The position numbers and the translations under genes are program-made. From positions 112,189 to 176,188 of the forward strand of contig NZ_LJGU01000113.1 of NCBI RefSeq assembly GCF_001751245.1: a stretch of DNA of 64,000 nt. Direction: 5' to 3'. This document shows, one piece after another, positions 4,876 to 60,129 of this stretch. Under the pieces are notes generated by a model. It made no database searches and was not told the DNA's origin. It saw nothing but the letters and a program-made list of their open reading frames with translations. This DNA comes from Streptomyces oceani. GTDB taxonomy: Bacteria > Actinomycetota > Actinomycetes > Streptomycetales > Streptomycetaceae. Each line of letters opens with the position of its first letter. Position 1 is the first letter of the stretch.

Positions 4876-5205
4876 ATGCCTGCGGGCTCGAACAAGAAGC
4901 GTGAACGGCAGTACGAGCACATCAAAGCGGGCCAGAAGGAACGGGGCACCTCTGAGCAGCGGGCGGAGGAGATCGCCTCCCGCACCGTCAACAAGGAACG
5001 CGCACAGACCGGCGAGGCAGGACGGGCCAGCCGTACCTCCACACAGGACAAGTCAGCGTCGCGTCGCGGTGGCGAACGCTCCGGCAACCGCAAGGGCCCG
5101 ATCAGCCCCACCCGCGACCAGCTGTACAACGAGGCAAGGCAGAAGGGCATCGACGGGCGCTCCAAGATGAACAAGGAGCAGCTCTCCCGCGCCGTCGGCC
5201 GGTGA
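4876..5205 (+). CDS. Small basic protein with SAP/Rho-N-like C-terminus (plasmid-stabilisation-type)
   Basis: 109 residues, very hydrophilic, rich in Lys, Arg and Glu. ATG 4876 follows a GGAGAGGAG ribosome site. The last ~30 residues (DQLYNEARQKGIDGRSKMNK and on) look like the short helix-extended-helix DNA-binding motif found in Rho N-terminal and SAP domains. Similar Streptomyces proteins are annotated as plasmid stabilisation proteins on weak grounds. The C-terminal motif closely resembles the tail of the Ku protein encoded at 13.1 kb (QLYQRASELDVSGRSRMNRA). DNA binding is therefore a reasonable inference; the biological role is unknown. Confidence 0.8.
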   Translation: MPAGSNKKRERQYEHIKAGQKERGTSEQRAEEIASRTVNKERAQTGEAGRASRTSTQDKSASRRGGERSGNRKGPISPTRDQLYNEARQKGIDGRSKMNKEQLSRAVGR

Positions 5206-5339
5206 TCCGGAGCGCGGGCGGGCGAGAAGGCCACTGGGAGGCTCGTGTGGTCAGCACGACTGACCTCCGACCGGAGGCGGATGGAGGATCTGGGTCTCGA
5301 TTCCTCGTACGGCGAACACCCCGACGCGGCTCCGCGGAA

Positions 5340-17761: not shown

Positions 17762-18517
17762 TCAGCGGAGTTTGATCGCGCCACCGTCCGCCATCAGGGT
17801 CTGACCGGTCATGTACCGCGAGTCATCGCTGGCGAGGAAGGCCACGATGGGCGCGACGTCCTCGTCCGGGTCGCCGAACCGCCCGAGCGGGACCTTGGCG
17901 GCCGACTGCGCGTACTGCTCGGGGCGCGCCTCGGCCCACTGGGCCACTCCGGCGGTGAGCGCCATGGGGCACACCACGTTGACCCGTATGTCGTGCTGGG
18001 CCCACTCGTTGGCCACGACCCGGCTGAGGCCCCGGATGGCCTCCTTCGTCGCGGCGTACGACGCCTGGTTGGGCTGGCCGTCCAAGCCCGCGCCGGAACC
18101 GAAGTTGATCACCGAGCCCGCCCCGGAGGCACGCAGTTCCGGCAGCGCCGCGAGCATGAAGTTGCGGGTGGCGTACAGGCTCGTGTCCATGGCGAGGTCC
18201 CAGTCCTCCGCCGTCTGCTCCTCGAAGGGTCGCTGCCGGGACACGCTCGCGTTGTTCACCAGGACGTCGAGCCCTCCGAAGCGCTCGGCGGCGGTCGCGA
18301 CGGCCGTGTCGGCGACGGCCCGGTCGGACACGTCCCCGCGCAGGAACACCATGGCGTCGCCGAGCTGGCGGGCGAGCGCCTCCCCGGCCTCCTCCTGTAG
18401 GTCCACGACGACGACCCGGGCGCCACGGTCGACGAACAGCTTCGTGACGGCACCGCCGATGCCCGAGGCCCCTCCGGTGACGAGGGCGGTCCTGCCTGCC
18501 AAGCTGGGAGTACTCAT
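17762..18517 (-). CDS. Short-chain dehydrogenase/reductase (SDR), probable steroid-island member
   Basis: 251 residues, classical SDR. ATG 18517 follows GAGGAAACG. The cofactor loop GGASGIGG (~residue 16), NNAS (~88), catalytic Ser in NFGSGAG (~138) and SYAATK (Tyr and Lys, ~153-157) are all present. Asp in the VVVVDLQ strand end favours NAD(H). Its promoter region carries a KstR-like motif at 18562-18578, 44 bp before the start codon, which ties it to the steroid genes. Likely an oxidoreductase of a hydroxyl group on a steroid or on a CoA intermediate; the position is unknown. Confidence 0.88.
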   Translation of the reverse strand: MSTPSLAGRTALVTGGASGIGGAVTKLFVDRGARVVVVDLQEEAGEALARQLGDAMVFLRGDVSDRAVADTAVATAAERFGGLDVLVNNASVSRQRPFEEQTAEDWDLAMDTSLYATRNFMLAALPELRASGAGSVINFGSGAGLDGQPNQASYAATKEAIRGLSRVVANEWAQHDIRVNVVCPMALTAGVAQWAEARPEQYAQSAAKVPLGRFGDPDEDVAPIVAFLASDDSRYMTGQTLMADGGAIKLR

Positions 18518-18561
18518 GCGTCGTTTCCTCGCGTCTCGCCCGGGTGCAGTGCTTCCAGGGC

Positions 18562-18701: not shown

Positions 18702-19037
18702 TCAGCCGTCCGCCGGCAGCTCTTCCCGCACGGGGATCTCCCCCGCGGCCGCCGCCTCCCGGATCGTCGCCGCGAGCGCCCGGCATCCTCGGAACCCCGG
18801 CCCGCCGGGATCCGGACCGCTGATACCCGAACCGCTGGAACCCGGTCCGCCAACGCCCGACCGCGAGCCGGACGGCAGCAGCCGGCGCTCGGCGCAGGCG
18901 CTCAGCGCCTCGGAGTCCCACTGGACGCTGGTCTGCTCCCAACTGCTCTTGCGCGCCGCCACCCGGGCGCCGCACGCCCGGCATACGACGGGCCGCATCG
19001 GGGAGTCGAGCAACCGGTTGTCGGTCCGTGGAGCCAT
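18702..19037 (-). CDS. Small cysteine-containing protein translationally coupled to kshA
   Basis: 111 residues of unknown family. The ATG at 19037 shares its A with the kshA stop (TGATG), so translation is coupled. An N-terminal segment VVCRACGARV (C-x2-C, ~residue 19) and conserved-looking SSWEQTSVQWDSEALSAC precede a Gly/Ser/Pro-rich low-complexity stretch (~55-80). A C-terminal helix, FRGCRALAATIREAAAAGEIPV, follows. Four cysteines (C-x2-C plus two) could bind zinc or an iron-sulfur cluster. The tight link to the Rieske oxygenase suggests a helper for KshA (assembly, electron transfer or regulation); this is inference. The low-complexity part looks like an insertion. Confidence 0.7.
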   Translation of the reverse strand: MAPRTDNRLLDSPMRPVVCRACGARVAARKSSWEQTSVQWDSEALSACAERRLLPSGSRSGVGGPGSSGSGISGPDPGGPGFRGCRALAATIREAAAAGEIPVREELPADG

Positions 19038-20191
19038 CAGACCGGCTGGCTCTCTGTCGAGACGTCGGCCTGTCTCGCGAGGTTCTCCGCGACCTCGGCC
19101 TGCCACGCCTCGTTGGGCCGCGTCGTGTCGATCTCGAACTCGAAGCGGTCGGTCATCTCCGGGCTCACCTCGGCGACGTCCACGTAGAACTGCTCGTACC
19201 AGCGGCGCAGCTGGTAGACCGGGCCGTCCTCCTCGCACAGAAGCGGGTTGTCGATCCGCGCCTTGTGCTGCCAGATCTCGACGTCCTGCTCAAAGCCGAT
19301 CTTGATGAACTCGGCCATCTTCCCGGCCAGTTCCTCCGCCGAGCCGCCGAGGTGCTCGGCCTTCCGCACCACGACGCCGTACTGCAACATGAACGAGTCC
19401 GAGCTCACCGGATAGTGGCAGTTGATCAGCACCGACTCCACGTCGCCGTCGCTGTAGTGATAGGTCAGCTCGTCGGTCATGAACGACGGACCGTGGTAGG
19501 TGGCCACCGAGGTCTGGCCCTGCACCTTGGGAGCGCCGCTCCCCTCGGCCTGTGGCCGGCGCACGTCCTCCCGCGCGACGCCCTCCATGACCTGGGTCGC
19601 GGTGTGACCCTCGAAGATGTTCTTGAAGTACGTGGGGAAGGAGTAGTGCACGTAGAAGAAGTGCGCCATGTCCACCACGTTGTCGATGATCTCGCGGCAG
19701 TTCGAGCCCTCGATCAGGACCGAGTACCAGGTCCAGTCCGTCCACTCGTCGCTCGTCGCGCCCTCGATGCGCGGCACCGTCACGTCCTCGGGCGGCGCCT
19801 TGCCCTCCGGGTCGTGCCACACGAACAGCAGGCCGTCCTGTTGCAGCGTCGGGAACGCCGCCGTACGGGCCCGCATCGGCGCCCGGCGGGCGTAGGGCAC
19901 GCCGGTGCAGCGTCCGTCGCCGCCCCACCGCCAGGAATGGAAGGGGCAGGCGACGTCGTCACCGATCACCGTGCCGCGGGACAGGTCTCCGCCCATGTGC
20001 CGGCAGTAGGCGTCGAGCACGTTCAGCGTGCCGTCCGAGGAGGCCCACACGACCAGCTTCTGCCCGAAGGCGTGGATCGTGTGCGGCTTCCCGTCCGCGA
20101 AGTCCCGGGCCAGTCCCAGACAGTGCCAGCCACGGGCGAAGCGTGTCGGCACAGCGTCCGCCTCGATGCTGCGAACCTCGTCCGTGGTCAT
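19037..20191 (-). CDS. kshA: 3-ketosteroid 9-alpha-hydroxylase oxygenase KshA
   Basis: 384 residues, the usual KshA length. The Rieske [2Fe-2S] ligands are Cys63-x-His65 and Cys82-x2-His85 (YCRHMGGDL and CPFHSW). The mononuclear iron site follows the DNVVDMAHFFYVHY pattern (Asn/Asp, two His), and a later Asp lies near GFEQDVEIW. With its reductase KshB it hydroxylates C9 of 3-keto-steroids (androstadienedione or the CoA-thioester side-chain form), which opens ring B together with KstD. It heads a two-gene unit with the 111-residue protein and has a motif A site 85 bp before its start. Confidence is high because length, motifs and neighbours all agree. Confidence 0.92.
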   Translation of the reverse strand: MTTDEVRSIEADAVPTRFARGWHCLGLARDFADGKPHTIHAFGQKLVVWASSDGTLNVLDAYCRHMGGDLSRGTVIGDDVACPFHSWRWGGDGRCTGVPYARRAPMRARTAAFPTLQQDGLLFVWHDPEGKAPPEDVTVPRIEGATSDEWTDWTWYSVLIEGSNCREIIDNVVDMAHFFYVHYSFPTYFKNIFEGHTATQVMEGVAREDVRRPQAEGSGAPKVQGQTSVATYHGPSFMTDELTYHYSDGDVESVLINCHYPVSSDSFMLQYGVVVRKAEHLGGSAEELAGKMAEFIKIGFEQDVEIWQHKARIDNPLLCEEDGPVYQLRRWYEQFYVDVAEVSPEMTDRFEFEIDTTRPNEAWQAEVAENLARQADVSTESQPV

Positions 20192-20368: not shown

Positions 20369-21877
20369 TCAGCCGGCCATGTCCTTGGCGGCCAGCGCCC
20401 CGAAGACCATCGCGGTGCCGATCGGGATACCGGGGCCGGGGTAGCAGTCCCCCGTGAAGGACGCGCTGGTGTTGCCGGCGGCGTACAGGCCGGCGATCGG
20501 CGAGCCGTCCTCCCGCAACGCCCGTCCGCGCACGTCCGTGACGAGGCCGCCCTTCGTACCCAGGTCCGCGAGTACGAGCCGCGCGGCGAAGTAGGGAGGT
20601 TCGCGGACGGCGCGCAGCACGGGGTCGCCGAACCAGTGGCCGAACTCGTCCCGTTCGCGGCCGAAGTCCGCGTCCCGACCGGCGTCGACGAAGCCGTTGA
20701 ACCGGTCGACGGTCGCGGTCAGGGCCTCGGCCGGGACGCCGATCCGTACGGCCAGCTCCTCCAGGGTGTCGGCCCTGCTCCACGTTCCCGCGGCCAGGTG
20801 CTCGGACGGGTCACCCGGCGGCATCGCGATGCCGGGGAACCGGCCGCCGGCCGCACTGTCGAAGATCACCTGGGAGGGCGTGCGAGCCGGGTCGGCCGCC
20901 ATCTCGCGTCCGAAGCGGTCGTACGGCAGCGACTCGTTGGCATACCGGGAGCCGTGCGCGTCGACGACGAGTCCGCCGGTGAACCCGGGCACGAAGCCGG
21001 CCCGGCCATCCGGCATGGCGACGCCAGGGCACCACCATGCCTCGTGCATCAGCGCGGTCACCGCCCCGATCGCGGTGGCGGCGCGGACGGGTTCGCCGGT
21101 GTTGGTGCCGAGCGGCGCCATCGCCCGGTCGGCGTGGCCGGGGACCCGATGGGCACGACGCAGGTCGGCGTTGCGCTCGAACCCGCCCCCGGCGAGGAGC
21201 ACCCCCCTCCGCGCGCCCAGCCGGACGACCCTGCCCTCCCGGACGGCGACGACCCCGGTCACCCGGTCTTCGTTGGTCACCAGCTCCTCCACACACGTCC
21301 CTAGGCGGAGGACGCCGTGGCCGGTGCGGTGGTACGCGAGCAGCAGCCGGCCGATCAGCGCGCGCCCGGCGCTCAGTGGGCCGGGGGCATGGCCCTCGCC
21401 GGCCCGGTTGCGTTCCACCGACGGACGGATCAGGGGCGCCAGATCGCCCAGCTCGGCCGCGTCGATGTCGAGCGGCACGAAGGACCGGCCACCCGGCACC
21501 CGGCCCGGCCGGTCGTAGTAGTCGGGGAAGACCCGGAACCGGAACTCGATGGCCGGGTCCGCCTCCAACTCCCCCACGAGCACGGGCGCCTCCCGAAGGA
21601 ACGCCTCCTGCTTCCCGGTGTCGTCGGCGCCCAACAGCGCGCGGAGGTACGTACGGGCCGCCTCGGTCGAGTCCCCGACCCCGTCCCGTGCCTGCACCTG
21701 CGAGCCGGGCAGCCACAGCGCGGCGCCGGAGTAGGCCGAGGTCCCGCCCAGCAGTGCGGTCTTCTCCACCACCGCGGTCGCCAGGCCCGCACTGGCGGCC
21801 GTGTACGCGCCGGTCAGCGCGCCGCCTCCCGATCCCACGACGACGACGTCGTACTCCTCGTCCCAGTTCCCCGCCAC
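20369..21877 (-). CDS. kstD: 3-ketosteroid dehydrogenase (KstD family), first copy
   Basis: 502 residues from GTG 21877 behind GGGAGG. FAD-binding Rossmann start VVVVGSGGGALTGAYTAASAG (~residue 11), then GGTSAYSGAALWLP. The catalytic end is GNTSASFTGDCYPGPGIPIG (~470-490); the Tyr and the second Gly of YPGPG match Tyr487 and Gly491 of the Rhodococcus Delta1-dehydrogenase. The family introduces a double bond into ring A (C1-C2, or C4-C5 in the Delta4 subgroup) with FAD. The GIPIGTAMVFG ending differs from the classical ATIGP and may mark the Delta4 or another subgroup. Single gene with its own motif A site 75 bp upstream. Confidence 0.88.
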   Translation of the reverse strand: MAGNWDEEYDVVVVGSGGGALTGAYTAASAGLATAVVEKTALLGGTSAYSGAALWLPGSQVQARDGVGDSTEAARTYLRALLGADDTGKQEAFLREAPVLVGELEADPAIEFRFRVFPDYYDRPGRVPGGRSFVPLDIDAAELGDLAPLIRPSVERNRAGEGHAPGPLSAGRALIGRLLLAYHRTGHGVLRLGTCVEELVTNEDRVTGVVAVREGRVVRLGARRGVLLAGGGFERNADLRRAHRVPGHADRAMAPLGTNTGEPVRAATAIGAVTALMHEAWWCPGVAMPDGRAGFVPGFTGGLVVDAHGSRYANESLPYDRFGREMAADPARTPSQVIFDSAAGGRFPGIAMPPGDPSEHLAAGTWSRADTLEELAVRIGVPAEALTATVDRFNGFVDAGRDADFGRERDEFGHWFGDPVLRAVREPPYFAARLVLADLGTKGGLVTDVRGRALREDGSPIAGLYAAGNTSASFTGDCYPGPGIPIGTAMVFGALAAKDMAG

Positions 21878-22171: not shown

Positions 22172-22789
22172 GTGCCGAGAATCGCCGCAGACCGCCCGGC
22201 CGCGGAGCCGCAGTCGCCGGGACAGCGAGCCCGGCACGAGCGCATTCTGGACGCGGCGGCCCGCCTCGGCGCGGAACACGGGCTCGACCACGTGCAGATG
22301 CACGACGTGGCGAAGGAGGCCGGCGTCGCCATCGCGACGCTGTACCGCTACTTCCCCTCCAAGACGCACCTGTTCACGGCGATCATGGCCGGACAGGTCG
22401 AGCGGATGGGCGAGAGCTCGCCCGAGATCGACGCCGCGGCCGACCCCGTGGAAGCGGTGGCCGAGACGCTCCTGCGCTCCACCCGGCACATGCTGCGCAC
22501 TCCGCGGCTGGCGAGCGCGATGATGCAGAGCACCTACGCCGCGCACGTCGCCACGGTCAGCGAGGCCGCCGCGACCGAGGCCAAGGTGCACGACACCGTC
22601 CTCGGGCTGCTCGGCCTGGTGGAACCGACCGACCAGGACAACCGTCTCGTACGGCTGCTGATGAAGAGCTGGCACGGCGTGCTCATCTCCGCGATCTACG
22701 CGCACTCGACGCTCTCCGAGGCGGAGACCGAGGTCCGGCTCGCGTGCGAGGTGCTGCTCGCGGCCCGCTCCAACGCTCCTGGCCGCTGA
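22172..22789 (+). CDS. TetR-family regulator, KstR-like
   Basis: 205 residues from GTG 22172 after GGGGGAGGAAC. The N-terminal helix-turn-helix (RHERILDAAARLGAEHG... VAIATLYRYFPSKTHLF, ~residues 20-68) resembles the mycobacterial cholesterol repressor KstR, including VQM between helices 1 and 2. The end (LVRLLMKSWHGVLISAIYAHSTLSEAETEVRLACEVLLA) also follows KstR. KstR represses steroid genes until a steroid-CoA binds. It sits inside the island, divergent from kstD. Motif B sites in the window have KstR-type architecture and are its most likely targets; direct evidence is lacking. Confidence 0.82.
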   Translation: MPRIAADRPAAEPQSPGQRARHERILDAAARLGAEHGLDHVQMHDVAKEAGVAIATLYRYFPSKTHLFTAIMAGQVERMGESSPEIDAAADPVEAVAETLLRSTRHMLRTPRLASAMMQSTYAAHVATVSEAAATEAKVHDTVLGLLGLVEPTDQDNRLVRLLMKSWHGVLISAIYAHSTLSEAETEVRLACEVLLAARSNAPGR

Positions 22790-56413: not shown

Positions 56414-57448
56414 TCACCCGTCGTAGGTGATCCTGAGGTGCTCGCTGAGCGGCAGCGCCTGGCAGGCGAGGACGAATCCGTCGGCGAGGTCGCGCTCGTC
56501 CAGCACGTCGTTCCGCTCCATGGCCACCTCCCCCTCGACCAGTAGGCAGGTGCACGCGCTGCACCTGCCCTCCCGGCAGGAGTACGGCGCCTCCAGGCCG
56601 GCCGCCAGAAGCACGTCGAGCAGCTTGTTGCTCGACGGCCAACTGACCGTCCGTGCCGCTCCGTCGAGTTCGACCTCGACCGTGCTGGTGGGTCCGGTGG
56701 CGTCGATGACGGTCTCGGCCTCGGTGAACGGATCGGTGGTCAGTGACGAGAACCGTTCGACGTGCGTCCGGTCCCGGGGCACGCCGAGGCCGTCGAGCGT
56801 CGCGGTGGCCAGGTCCATGAAGGGCTCCGGGCCGCAGACGTACGCCTGCCGGCCGGCGTACGGCTGGATCAGCGCCGTCAGGCCCTCGGGGCCCGGCAGC
56901 CCCTGCACGGACTCCAGCCAGTGCACGACGGCGATCCGGGAGCCGTACTCGGCGGCCAGCGCGGTGAGTTCGTCCCGGAAGATCACGGAGTGCTCGTCCC
57001 GGTTGGCGTAGAGCAGGGTGACGGAGCCGGAGCCCCCGTGCAGGCAGGACTTGAGGATCGACATCACCGGAGTGATCCCGCTGCCGGCCGCGAGGAGCAG
57101 GAAGTCCTCGTCGAGCGAGTCCGGGGTGAACGTGCCCGACGGTGGCAGCACCTGGAGGGTGTCGCCCTCCACGACGTGGTCGCAGATCCAGTTCGAGGCG
57201 TACCCGTCGGCCGTACGCTTCACGGTGATCCGCGGCTTCTCGTCCCGCAGCGGGGAGCTGCACAGCGAGTAGCAGCGCGCGACCGCCCCGTCGTGTTCGG
57301 ACGGTATCCGGACGGTCAGGAACTGACCGGGCCGGTACTGGAACTCCTCGTGTGTCGCGTCCAGCGGTTCGAGCGCGAGCGAGTGCGCGTCGGCGGACTC
57401 GCGTACGACCTCGACGACACGAACGGTGATCGGGCTGGCTCGCCCCAT
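56414..57448 (-). CDS. kshB: 3-ketosteroid 9-alpha-hydroxylase reductase KshB
   Basis: 344 residues from ATG 57448 behind GCGGAGGAG. Ferredoxin-NADP reductase-like part: FLTVRIPSEHDGAVARCYSLCSSP (flavin motif RCYS, ~residue 60), LLLAAGSGITPVMSILKSCL (NADH/flavin contact, ~118), YVCGPEPFMD (~205). The C-terminal plant-type [2Fe-2S] cluster is bound by YSCREGRCSACTC (~290-302) plus a later Cys in VLACQALPL. It passes electrons from NADH to KshA, encoded 36 kb away. It is third in the hsaD-kstD-kshB unit. Confidence 0.92.
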   Translation of the reverse strand: MGRASPITVRVVEVVRESADAHSLALEPLDATHEEFQYRPGQFLTVRIPSEHDGAVARCYSLCSSPLRDEKPRITVKRTADGYASNWICDHVVEGDTLQVLPPSGTFTPDSLDEDFLLLAAGSGITPVMSILKSCLHGGSGSVTLLYANRDEHSVIFRDELTALAAEYGSRIAVVHWLESVQGLPGPEGLTALIQPYAGRQAYVCGPEPFMDLATATLDGLGVPRDRTHVERFSSLTTDPFTEAETVIDATGPTSTVEVELDGAARTVSWPSSNKLLDVLLAAGLEAPYSCREGRCSACTCLLVEGEVAMERNDVLDERDLADGFVLACQALPLSEHLRITYDG

Positions 57449-57523
57449 GGCTCCTCCGCTTTCCCGCTTCTGTCTTGCCCCCGGGCGCTCAGATCCCCGG
57501 AAACGCTCAAGCTCCGGAAACGC

Positions 57524-59266
57524 TCAGGCCGGATCGACGGCGGACCGGGCCGTGGCGCCGCTGTCGCCGGCGTCGCTGGTTCCGGCGGCGCTGGCCGCGG
57601 GGGCGGTCTGCCGGGCGGCCGCGTGCCGGGCGGCGACGTAGCCGAAGACGAGGGACGGGCCGATGGTCGCGCCGGGTCCGGCGTACTCGTTGCCCATCAC
57701 GGAAGCGGAGGTGTTCCCGGTCGCGTACAGGCCCGGGATGAGCGACCCGTCCTCCCGAAGCACCCGGCTGTGCTCGTCACAGACCAGCCCGCCCTTGGTG
57801 CCGAGGTCGCCGACCTCGATGCGTACGGCGTGGAAGGGCGGCTTGACGATCTCGTCCAGGTTGGGATTGGGCAGCGTCGGATCGCCGTAGTAGCGGTCGT
57901 ACGCGCTGTCGCCGCGGCCGAAGTCGGTGTCCTCGCCGGCGCGGGCCAGCTCGTTGAACCGTTCGACGGTCTGGGTCAACTGCTCCGGGGGCAGGCCGAC
58001 CCGGTCGGCCAGTTCGGCGATGGTGTCGGCTCGGTGCGCCAGACCGCTCGCGTAGAACTCCTCGGGGAACGGCATGCCGGGCAGGACCTGCGCGAACGGA
58101 TAGCGGGCGCGGGCCTTCGCGTCCATCACGAACCAGGCCGGGACGTGACCGCCCGCCAGTTGGTCGTGAACGAAGTTGACGTACGGCGCGGACTCGTTGG
58201 TGAACCGCCTGCCGTCGGCCGAGACGATCACGGACGGTGGGATGCACCGCTCGGACACCAGCGGGATCGTCGCTCCCGAGGGGTGCCGCACCGAGGGCAT
58301 CCACCACGCGTCGTCCATGAAGTCGAGCGCCGCGCCCAGGCCCCGGCCGGCCACGATGCCATCGCCCACGTTCTCCTGTGCCCCGGCGCTGAAGTCCGCC
58401 TGGCTGCCCACCGGCAGGTGCTCCTCGCGCATCTCCTGGTTGTGGTCGAAGCCGCCGGTCGCGAGGAGCACGCCGTGCCGTGCCCCGATCCGTACCTGAG
58501 TGCCGTCCGCCCGGCGGGCGACGAGGCCGGTCACCGTGCCGTCGGGGGCGGTGACGAGTTCGGTCATCGGCGTCCGCAGCCACACCGGGACGTCCGCGTC
58601 CTTGAGCGCCATCCGCAGCCGGGCCACGAGCGCGCGCCCGCCGGTCGCCATGTGCCGCCGGCGCACCACGTTGGACGACACCCGCCAGGCCGCGACGACG
58701 GAGGCCCACCGGCCCCGCCAGGTGCGCTTGACCATCGCGAGGTCCCGGTAGTCCTTGGCGGTGATCCACAGGCCGAGCGGTCCCTTGAGGCTGTTGGGCC
58801 GCTGGAACTCCTCGTCCGCGCCCAGCTTGCGGGTGTCGAACGGCAGCGCCTCGACGGACCGGCCCAGCGGCCGGCCGCCCTCGTACTCCGGGTGGTAGTC
58901 GGCGTACCCCTTGACCCAGAAGAAGCGCATCCAGCGGCTCCTACCGAGCAGCCGCATCGTCTCCGGGCCGTGCTCGACGTACGCGTCCAGCCTCGCCGCC
59001 GGGACCCGGCCCTCGGTGAGGTGGTCGAGGTAGCGGCGGACGGACCCGGGGCTGTCGTCATGACCCCTGGCGCGCAGCGTGGGGTTGTTGGGGATCCAGA
59101 TACCGCCGCCGGATATTCCGGTCGTACCGCCGAACATGCCGCCCTTCTCCAGCACGACGGTGGACAGCCCGCCGTCCGCGGCGGTCAGCGCGGCGGCCAT
59201 GCCGCCTCCGCCGCTGCCCACCACGACGAAGTCGAACTCGTGGTCCCAGGACGCCTCTGCGCTCAC
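57524..59266 (-). CDS. kstD: 3-ketosteroid Delta1-dehydrogenase (KstD)
   Basis: 580 residues; GTG 59266 overlaps the hsaD stop (GTGA) behind GGAAGGAG. FAD loop VVVGSGGGGMAAALTAADGG (~residue 14), GGTTGISGGGIWIPNNP (~47). The C-terminal GNTSASVMGNEYAGPGATIGPSLVFGY (~520-545) carries Tyr and Gly equivalent to Tyr487/Gly491 and the ATIGP ending of classical Delta1-dehydrogenases such as Rhodococcus KstD. The last ~35 residues are an Ala/Ser/Gly-rich tail. Of the three copies this is the best candidate for the true Delta1-desaturation that, with KshA/B, opens ring B. Confidence 0.9.
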   Translation of the reverse strand: MSAEASWDHEFDFVVVGSGGGGMAAALTAADGGLSTVVLEKGGMFGGTTGISGGGIWIPNNPTLRARGHDDSPGSVRRYLDHLTEGRVPAARLDAYVEHGPETMRLLGRSRWMRFFWVKGYADYHPEYEGGRPLGRSVEALPFDTRKLGADEEFQRPNSLKGPLGLWITAKDYRDLAMVKRTWRGRWASVVAAWRVSSNVVRRRHMATGGRALVARLRMALKDADVPVWLRTPMTELVTAPDGTVTGLVARRADGTQVRIGARHGVLLATGGFDHNQEMREEHLPVGSQADFSAGAQENVGDGIVAGRGLGAALDFMDDAWWMPSVRHPSGATIPLVSERCIPPSVIVSADGRRFTNESAPYVNFVHDQLAGGHVPAWFVMDAKARARYPFAQVLPGMPFPEEFYASGLAHRADTIAELADRVGLPPEQLTQTVERFNELARAGEDTDFGRGDSAYDRYYGDPTLPNPNLDEIVKPPFHAVRIEVGDLGTKGGLVCDEHSRVLREDGSLIPGLYATGNTSASVMGNEYAGPGATIGPSLVFGYVAARHAAARQTAPAASAAGTSDAGDSGATARSAVDPA

Positions 59267-60129
59267 GCCGACTCCTTCCGGGTCAGGAAGGCGAGTACGG
59301 CGCTCTCCCAGGCCGACTTCCGCTCGATCATCACCCAGTGCCCGCAGTTCGGGAACACGTGGAGTTCGACGTCGGGGATGGTGCGCATCGGCACGATGGA
59401 CATGTCCACGGGGCTGACCCGGTCGTCGCGGCCCCAGGTGATGAGGGTCTTCGCCCGCAGCTTGTGCAGCATCGCCCAGTACGGCGGCTCGTCGGACTTC
59501 GCCGCGGCGGCGGCGCGGGCCGCGAACGCGGCGCTGCCGTACACGCTCTGGGCGTTGGCGAGGGCCTGCGGGTCGGTGCCCAGCTGCCACCGCTCCTCGA
59601 CCAGCTCGTCGGTGACCAGGGCCGGGTCGTACACCATGGAGCGCAGCCAGCGGACCAGCCCGTCGCGGGTGGGGTTGTCGGTGAACTCCGTCAGCAGCCT
59701 GATCCCCTCGCCGGGTCCGGGGCTGTGGAGGTTCCTGCCGATCCCTCCGATGGTCACCAGCCGCCGTACGCGGTCCGGGTTCCGCAGGGCGAACTGGGTG
59801 CCGACGATGCCGCCCATCGAGTTGCCGACGACGTCGACCCGGCGCAGGTCCAGCGCGTCCAGGAAACGGCCGACGGTCGCCGGGGCGGTGACCATGGGGT
59901 GCCCGTCGAGCGGGTCGCTGACGCCGAACCCGGGAAGTTCCAGGACCAGGCAGCGGAAGTGCTTGGCGAAGGTGGCGAGATTGCCGCGGTAGTTCCGCCA
60001 TCCCGTGACGCCGGGCCCGGAGCCGTGCAGCATCAACAGCGGCGGACCGTCACCGGCCTCGTGGTAGCGCAACACGCCCTGATCGGTCACGAGCTCGCGT
60101 GCGGTGGACTCGTAGCTCAGTTCCGTCAT
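59263..60129 (-). CDS. hsaD: Meta-cleavage product hydrolase HsaD
   Basis: 288 residues from ATG 60129. Alpha/beta hydrolase: LLMLHGSGPGVTGWRNY oxyanion region (~residue 30), nucleophile in VGNSMGGIVG (~101), Asp in WGRDDRVSP (~235), His in NCGHWVMIE (~264). LPGFGVSDPLDGHP and the GSGPGVTGW motif are typical of MCP hydrolases (HsaD/BphD). It cuts 4,9-DSHA to HIP (the FadD3 substrate) and a C6 dienoate (the HsaE substrate). First of a three-gene unit. Confidence 0.95.
   Translation of the reverse strand: MTELSYESTARELVTDQGVLRYHEAGDGPPLLMLHGSGPGVTGWRNYRGNLATFAKHFRCLVLELPGFGVSDPLDGHPMVTAPATVGRFLDALDLRRVDVVGNSMGGIVGTQFALRNPDRVRRLVTIGGIGRNLHSPGPGEGIRLLTEFTDNPTRDGLVRWLRSMVYDPALVTDELVEERWQLGTDPQALANAQSVYGSAAFAARAAAAAKSDEPPYWAMLHKLRAKTLITWGRDDRVSPVDMSIVPMRTIPDVELHVFPNCGHWVMIERKSAWESAVLAFLTRKESA

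What the first reader, a model, noticed from the sequence alone, without database searches (positions are those of the whole stretch)
18702..19037. Unrecognised 111-residue C-x2-C protein fused by overlap to kshA
Its start codon overlaps the kshA stop, so the two are made together. Four cysteines, the SSWEQTSVQW segment and a C-terminal helix look conserved in style, yet I know no named family. KshA is otherwise thought to need only KshB. A third component, metallochaperone or substrate-delivery protein would be new.
Basis: inference. Interest (0 to 1): 0.66.

Follow-up and report, generated by a model that had tools for sequence, protein, structure and literature searches.

The report
Conserved Cys4 partner of steroid hydroxylase KshA
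The small four-cysteine protein encoded in a one-base overlap with the steroid-opening enzyme KshA belongs to an unnamed but widespread family that sits directly behind kshA in most steroid-degrading actinobacteria examined, so this well-studied two-part enzyme probably has an overlooked accessory protein.

Summary
The ORF (18702..19037, minus) starts inside the kshA stop (TGATG) and encodes 111 residues with exactly four cysteines and no Pfam or NCBIfam family. It belongs to a conserved actinobacterial family: C-x2-C-x16-QW-x7-C-x(10-36)-C, then a helix. In 394 genomes of the class, full-strength kshA and this family occur in the same 54 genomes; 78 of 99 such kshA genes have a member within 600 bp downstream. 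In 13 of 66 loci, and on a Tsukamurella plasmid, it lies between kshA and a kshB-like gene. Of 297 mycobacterial genomes 16 lack it, and none of those has an intact full-strength kshA. The likely M. tuberculosis member is the "hypothetical" Rv3527. Distances track those of KshA, and selection is purifying. So it is very probably a KSH accessory protein. Metal binding, contact with KshA and a role in assembly or stability (as VdcD serves VdcC) are inferred. It is not absolutely required for catalysis: KshA plus KshB work in foreign hosts, one KshA clade lacks a neighbouring member, and two proteobacterial kshA loci have none. Metallochaperone and substrate-delivery readings stay open.

The parts
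18702..19037 (-). KshA-associated Cys4 protein (111 aa; C19, C22, C48, C85; conserved SSWEQTSVQW; a Gly/Ser/Pro-rich insert between C48 and C85)
19037..20191 (-). kshA, 3-ketosteroid 9alpha-hydroxylase oxygenase (384 aa), upstream partner; its TGA shares one base with the ATG of the small gene
20369..21877 (-). KstD-like FAD protein, next gene upstream on the same strand
   Evidence: FAD_binding_2 233 bits; best NCBIfam matches an FAD-binding protein model and 3-ketosteroid dehydrogenase models, those shown all below their cut-offs
17762..18523 (-). short-chain dehydrogenase, next gene downstream on the same strand
56414..57448 (-). KshB-like flavin/2Fe-2S reductase, the expected electron donor of KshA, elsewhere in the window
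   Evidence: 55% identity to the reductase encoded behind kshA and a member on a Tsukamurella plasmid

Best explanation
It is a small cytosolic accessory protein of the 3-ketosteroid 9alpha-hydroxylase (KSH). SHOWN: it belongs to a conserved actinobacterial family with a Cys4 core; it is encoded directly after kshA, commonly in stop/start overlap, in some lineages between kshA and a kshB-like gene; in the class sample it is found in the same genomes as kshA, and sampled mycobacteria without it have no intact full-strength kshA; its distances follow those of KshA. INFERRED: the four cysteines bind one metal ion, most likely a structural zinc; the protein is made at about the same rate as KshA, binds it as it folds or assembles, and helps it reach or keep its active form (trimer, Rieske cluster, active-site iron, or docking with KshB), much as the zinc-ribbon subunit VdcD supports the decarboxylase VdcC. 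It tunes or stabilises KshA in the cell but is not needed for the chemistry itself.
For: The same 54 of 394 class genomes hold strong kshA (over 240 bits to KshA_C) and the family, 340 hold neither (three marginal family hits left out); 78 of 99 strong kshA have a member under 600 bp downstream, 0 of 26 weaker KshA_C relatives do. Of 82 members, 78 are adjacent to an intact kshA, one to a kshA split over frames, and three lie about 4-11 kb from a kshA. Of 62 distinct members with kshA assigned upstream, 46 overlap its stop and 61 start no more than 11 bp behind it (start codons were chosen to favour short overlaps). A KshB-like gene was found in 14 of 66 loci, in 13 of them 17-153 bp behind the member; the same order on a Tsukamurella plasmid. 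281 of 297 Mycobacterium s.l. genomes hold the family; none of the 16 without it has an intact full-strength kshA (six of the 16 are under 90% complete). Distance correlation with KshA r = 0.86 in 60 pairs, 0 of 2000 permutations as high. Four Cys invariant in 66 rows, C-x2-C-x25-C in most. Published passages: KshA activity drops on purification or holds only with KshB present (PMC4064121); E. coli inclusion bodies without activity (PMC4967059).
Against: KshA plus KshB alone are active in B. subtilis, in E. coli and as purified proteins (PMC4064121, PMC4967059, passages). 21 of 99 strong kshA have no adjacent member; 14 of these form one KshA clade; the two proteobacterial kshA loci examined also lack it. 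Three members sit behind other steroid or flavin genes. The M. tuberculosis gene Rv3527 is not marked as specifically required on cholesterol in the compilation where kshA is (PMC6429209, table passages). I saw no metal, binding or activity data. Models are of low to middling confidence and match no fold. Genes linked in one operon show correlated distances even without contact.
Confidence: 0.5

Rival explanations
1. Metallochaperone: it carries iron (or guards zinc or iron) for the mononuclear site or Rieske cluster of KshA and leaves after loading.
For: Cys4 core; six of 66 members have at least 4 His within 12 residues, in the N-terminal extension of a long mycobacterial form or the C-terminal tail of L081; co-occurrence with KshA.
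Against: The His-rich stretches are absent from the window protein and the other 59 members; other Rieske oxygenases need no dedicated chaperone that I know of (recalled); KshA is loaded in foreign hosts.
Confidence: 0.15
2. Redox component: the protein is the second small iron-sulphur (or rubredoxin-like) protein of the three-component 9alpha-hydroxylase described from Nocardia in 1982, passing electrons between KshB and KshA.
For: Gene order kshA-member-kshB in 13 of 66 loci and a plasmid; [quoted passage not shown]
Against: Cys spacing fits no ferredoxin, Rieske or rubredoxin pattern known to me (patterns recalled; spacing); KshB already carries a plant-type iron-sulphur cluster from which KshA takes electrons (PMC4064121); two-component reconstitution works.
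Confidence: 0.12
3. Substrate handling: it binds steroid or steroid-CoA and hands it to KshA.
For: Three members stand behind KstD-like/SnoaL-type or old-yellow-enzyme-like genes rather than directly behind kshA (gene types partly my reading), as a general substrate carrier might.
Against: Small Cys4 core with no evident hydrophobic pocket; LysW hits are at E 3.9-7.6, probability 0.05-0.08, and do not recur with the better model.
Confidence: 0.08
4. Regulator: a small zinc-finger protein that senses metal, oxygen or steroid and tunes expression of the operon.
For: Weak zinc-ribbon-like profile matches (12 of 66 members to Zn_ribbon_RPAB4, best E 0.002; 12.7 bits against a cut-off of 24 for the window protein); Rv3527 is listed among hypoxia-repressed, reaeration-induced genes (PMC2905415, one passage).
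Against: No DNA-binding family match over cut-off; tight coupling to kshA itself is unusual for a regulator; in mycobacteria a KstR motif is already listed upstream of kshA (PMC1995591, passages).
Confidence: 0.08
5. No functional link: a conserved small gene that merely hitch-hikes behind kshA.
For: Operon neighbours are inherited together; one KshA clade lives without its own copy.
Against: Matching occurrence in 394 genomes, joint absence in 16 mycobacteria, adjacency in six families of the class, purifying selection.
Confidence: 0.03

Closest known systems
VdcD, zinc-ribbon small subunit of vanillate decarboxylase VdcCD (PMC8379154, passages)
   Same: Small (under about 10 kDa) Cys4 protein serving a large catabolic enzyme as a non-catalytic partner; the paper notes that several such small helpers have no sequence similarity to each other and unknown roles
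   Different: VdcD has two CXXC knuckles and is strictly required for activity; the KshA partner has one CXXC plus two spaced Cys and a C-terminal helix, and KshA works without it in foreign hosts. No homology was tested or shown.
KSH, the KshA/KshB 3-ketosteroid 9alpha-hydroxylase (PMC4064121, passages)
   Same: Gene neighbourhood, gene order kshA-member-kshB in some lineages, genome distribution
   Different: KSH is described as two-component; this gene is not part of the passages seen
Rv3527 of M. tuberculosis (hypothetical protein, gene number next to kshA Rv3526)
   Same: Probable ortholog: in a relative whose KshA matches 2ZYL over all 383 residues (884.6 bits) the gene directly behind kshA is a family member (2ZYL named as M. 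tuberculosis KshA in PMC6153880)
   Different: The Rv3527 sequence itself was not available here; the orthologous mycobacterial form has an N-terminal extension, partly His-rich
DmmA-like C-terminal domain (PF22289), dimethylamine monooxygenase subunit
   Same: A subunit of a multi-component monooxygenase; one family member (L074) matches 21 residues around its CXXC hairpin, E 0.0012
   Different: 19.2 bits against a cut-off of 27.4, and no match for the window protein

Membership tests
KshA-associated Cys4 family (defined here) | C-x2-C, QW 16 residues later, third Cys 7 further on in most members, fourth Cys before a C-terminal L...I..A...G helix | tested here: met
   window protein C19, C22, Q39-W40, C48, C85, L88, I92, A95, G99
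KshA-associated Cys4 family (defined here) | Gene directly downstream of kshA on the same strand | tested here: met
Zinc ribbon with two CXXC knuckles (VdcD type) | Two CXXC motifs binding one zinc | tested here: not met
   the window protein has a single CXXC; spacings 2, 25, 36. Motif definition from PMC8379154
Plant-type or Rieske ferredoxin | C-x4-C-x2-C-x(about 29)-C, or C-x-H...C-x2-H (recalled) | tested here: not met
   spacing; no ferredoxin-type or Rieske match for the window protein
DmmA-like_C (PF22289) | Score over Pfam cut-off 27.4 | tested here: not met
   1 of 66 members matches, at 19.2 bits; window protein no match
Zn_ribbon_RPAB4 (PF03604) | Score over Pfam cut-off 24 | tested here: not met
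   12.7 bits for the window protein
Metal-binding protein in general | Bound metal ion | not testable with these tools
   Inferred from four invariant Cys only
KSH subunit | Physical association with KshA or effect on its activity | not testable with these tools
   Only genomic evidence here
Any fold in the PDB | Structural match to a predicted model | tested here: inconclusive
   Models of mean pLDDT 61.2 and 76.9; Foldseek best E 3.9 and 0.84; VIA-align best Z 2.4

The most novel reading that the evidence does not exclude
In actinobacterial cells the 3-ketosteroid 9alpha-hydroxylase is a three-protein system: a small Cys4 protein, overlooked because KshA and KshB suffice when overexpressed, is a standing subunit or obligatory assembly or redox partner of KshA. 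It may even be the third component reported biochemically in 1982, and it could explain a published infection phenotype of the hypothetical Rv3527.
Probability: 0.3. Interest if true: 0.82.

Novelty: new variant of a known kind. Interest (0 to 1): 0.62.

Why it matters
[quoted passage not shown] tuberculosis (PMC4064121, passages). A conserved partner gene co-inherited with it could help explain poor solubility and activity loss of KshA in foreign hosts, offer a simple co-expression fix, suggest a function for a hypothetical protein listed as essential for survival in macrophages and mice (PMC6429209, table), and reopen the discrepancy between the three-component enzyme first purified and the two-component enzyme later cloned.

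Tried and rejected
Chance ORF: rejected (homologues, invariant residues, dN/dS). Known family: no Pfam or NCBIfam match over cut-off for the window protein. All 66 members were scanned and only weak matches listed (best E 0.0012 Pfam, 0.0056 NCBIfam; those tables give no cut-offs); Pfam cut-offs were seen for the window protein and 20 other members, and every match there was below them. Plasmid search with the single protein found nothing; the profile later found a member on a Tsukamurella plasmid. Fold searches gave no significant match (the models are modest, so absence shows nothing). No KstR-type box was found near kshA in the window: one match with one mismatch at 154, 2.6 expected, so I make no regulatory claim. 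The ORF behind a Sphingobium kshA (L129) looks by my own reading like a SnoaL/NTF2-type protein and is not a member. A phylum-wide sample of 193 gave the same 6 genomes with strong kshA and the family, all already in the class sample; the other 187, some of them also in the class sample, add only absences; one marginal family hit (G817, E 0.003) was discounted. Three marginal hits in the class sample (G147, G377, G393; E 0.001-0.008) were left out of the 54. Rows dropped before counts: L102 (identical to L101), L069 and L077 (truncated KshA) and L094 (broken kshA) are not in the KshA tree, nor L070 and L072 (no kshA in the stretch). Paper searches for a prior description: 'Rv3527' 3 papers; 'kshA' with 'downstream', 'hypothetical protein' and 'steroid' 7 papers; 'MSMEG_5926', 'MSMEG_5924' or 'Rv3526' 9 papers; phrases such as 'downstream of kshA' or 'between kshA and kshB' 0 papers. 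Find searches in PMC8228715 and PMC3182942 gave no passage. What I saw of these (listings and passages) does not describe this family; most subscription papers are not held, and Strijewski 1982 was seen only through the review. 'KshC' is already used in PMC6680482, titled as an oxygenation component (listing only), so I coin no gene name.

Full report
WHAT IS THERE. The ORF at 18702..19037 (minus) is as described: 111 residues, ATG sharing its A with the TGA of kshA. The upstream protein is a true KshA (KshA_C 303 bits, Rieske 74 bits; its PDB relatives at 1e-30 are three KshA sequences). Upstream of kshA lies a KstD-like FAD protein, downstream of the small gene a short-chain dehydrogenase; HsaA (626.8 bits, cut-off 450), a FadD3-type ligase (693.4 bits, cut-off 657) and a KstR-like TetR protein (103 bits, cut-off 280) are close by, and a KshB-like reductase is encoded at 56414..57448. 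So this is a steroid ring-degradation cluster.

IS IT A FAMILY? A profile of these and the window protein found 54 of 394 genomes of the class, with a second, more distant subfamily at about 38-65 bits. A combined alignment of 66 members has invariant C19, C22, Q39, W40, C48 and C85 and nearly invariant V26, K30, T36, L88, I92, A95, G99. Spacing is C-x2-C-x16-QW-x7-C-x(10-36)-C in most; the window protein has the longest last gap (36), filled by a Gly/Ser/Pro-rich stretch. Members are 77-158 residues long, 46 of 66 with exactly four Cys; the highest 19-residue hydropathy in any is 1.6, in the window protein 0.7, so a membrane helix is unlikely. In 27 pairs of 72-97% identity dN/dS is 0.11-0.44, median 0.22. 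No Pfam or NCBIfam family claims the window protein, and nothing convincing claims the others.

LINK TO KSHA. The same 394 genomes were searched with KshA_C and with the family profile. Taking KshA_C matches over 240 bits as KshA proper, 54 genomes have kshA and the same 54 have the family; 340 have neither, three marginal family hits left out. Fisher p is about 7e-68, but genomes are related; by genus it is 14 of 137 for kshA, 14 of 137 for the first family profile and 17 of 137 for the second with its three marginal hits. 78 of 99 strong kshA genes have a member within 600 bp downstream on the same strand; none of 26 weaker relatives (155-171 bits) does. Of 82 members, 78 are so placed; one (G418) follows a kshA whose matches are spread over several frames (L094); three (two in G105, one in G180) lie about 4-11 kb from a kshA, behind KstD-like plus SnoaL-type genes or between old-yellow-enzyme-like and alpha/beta-hydrolase genes (gene types there are my reading of the translations). 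Of 62 distinct members with kshA assigned upstream, 46 overlap the kshA stop and 61 start no more than 11 bp behind it; the script picked start codons near a 4-base overlap, so the overlap share is an upper estimate. A KshB-like gene was found in 14 of 66 loci: in 13 it follows 17-153 bp behind the member, in L008 it lies on the other strand at the locus end. An 18.7-kb Tsukamurella plasmid carries kstD-kshA-member-reductase, the member annotated 'hypothetical protein'. A Nocardioides simplex study lists kshA as KR76_14170 and kshB as KR76_14160 (PMC7593942, passages); a locus-tag step of five would leave room for one gene between them (my inference).

GAIN AND LOSS. 281 of 297 Mycobacterium s.l. 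genomes have the family. The 16 without it were searched for KshA_C: 11 had no match at 1e-10; of the other five, one had a partial 203-bit match with an in-frame stop plus two weaker ones, three had matches of the weaker 154-171-bit class, and one a 90-bit match with a stop. Six of the 16 genomes are under 90% complete. I did not search the 281 positives for kshA apart from those in the class sample. In a tree of 86 KshA proteins (61 with, 23 without an adjacent member, 2 proteobacterial) the label 'with' needs 8 changes against a shuffled mean of 21.9; 14 partner-less KshA form one clade. So having the neighbour is a lineage trait of KshA, and one lineage lives without its own copy, though the 14 genomes that hold it here have a member elsewhere. 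Member and KshA distances correlate at r = 0.86 over 60 pairs (0 of 2000 permutations as high). In six genomes with two or three such loci (8 comparisons) the members differ at 57-76% of positions and their KshAs at 35-45%, so members go with kshA type rather than with genome. Linkage alone can produce this.

NAMED RELATIVES. The M. tuberculosis genome was not identified in the set. In G557 the KshA matches PDB 2ZYL (M. tuberculosis KshA: PMC6153880, passage) over all 383 residues at 884.6 bits, and a member lies directly behind. Hence Rv3527, numbered next to kshA Rv3526, is the likely ortholog (inference). [quoted passage not shown] kshA carries both marks (PMC6429209, table passages). It also lists Rv3526 and Rv3527 as both missing from the leprosy bacilli. 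The main text of the transposon study behind the cholesterol mark names neither gene (PMC3182942, find search); its supplements were not seen. Rv3528c is by its name on the opposite strand, so a polar effect on further genes is unlikely (my inference).

HOW IT MAY WORK. Four invariant Cys in a small soluble protein argue for a bound metal, most simply zinc. The better model (78 residues, mean pLDDT 76.9) is a small helix, three strands and three further helices, with the fourth Cys just before the last one (residue numbers). No fold match. Coupled translation behind kshA and, in some lineages, placement before kshB fit a protein that meets KshA while it assembles. KshA is reported as fragile: the M. 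smegmatis enzyme lost most activity on purification, the R. rhodochrous one stayed active only together with KshB, and M. neoaurum KSH formed inactive inclusion bodies in E. coli (PMC4064121, PMC4967059, passages). All this fits a stabilising or assembly subunit, but also ordinary Fe-S fragility. The strongest counter-evidence is that KshA and KshB without it give active enzyme in B. subtilis and E. coli (same passages). I therefore put a KSH-linked role at about 0.93, the accessory/assembly-subunit reading at 0.5, metallochaperone 0.15, redox component 0.12, substrate handling 0.08, regulator 0.08.

COMPARISON. VdcD of vanillate decarboxylase is the best functional analogue: a small zinc-ribbon subunit that allosterically activates its enzyme (PMC8379154, passages). 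Membership in the two-knuckle zinc-ribbon, ferredoxin or DmmA-type families was tested and not met. The 1982 Nocardia system with two iron-sulphur proteins (PMC4064121) leaves a real historical gap this protein could fill, but its cysteine spacing does not look like a ferredoxin.

LIMITS. Distribution was judged in one class sample (394 genomes), one genus sample (297) and a phylum sample (193, all full positives already known). Proteobacterial kshA was examined at two loci only. I know of no experiment on it.

Noticed in passing
L069 5001-5273, L072 4962-5216, L070 4950-5207: Members not directly behind kshA: two follow KstD-like and SnoaL-type genes, one stands between old-yellow-enzyme-like and alpha/beta-hydrolase genes near a flavin monooxygenase; each has a partner-less kshA about 4-11 kb away, so the family may serve more than KshA.
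   Followed up: partly
L059, L062, L101, L113, L076 (N-terminal extension); L081 (C-terminus): His-rich stretches (4-5 His in 12 residues) in six of 66 members, absent from the window protein.
   Followed up: partly
L094 (G418) 4998-5267: Intact-looking family member next to a kshA whose matches are spread over several frames; the genome has another kshA with a member.
   Followed up: no
window 22172-22789: TetR protein resembling KstR (103 bits, far below the equivalog cut-off of 280), while no KstR-type box was found near kshA; the cluster may use another operator.
   Followed up: partly
window 56414-60001: KshB-like reductase and, by my reading of the translation, a second KstD-like protein, about 36 kb from kshA on the same strand.
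   Followed up: no
own genus: Of 60 same-genus genomes searched with the single protein none matched better than E 2.6e-4; in the class sample one other same-genus genome (G216) has kshA, a member of the distant subfamily and a KshB-like gene, so the cluster looks sporadic and perhaps acquired in this genus.
   Followed up: partly
L140-L143, L145, L147-L149, L151-L156: A KshA clade of 14 rows without an adjacent member, present as extra copies in Mycobacteriaceae-type genomes (family f6); its substrate and whether it uses the member in trans are unknown.
   Followed up: partly
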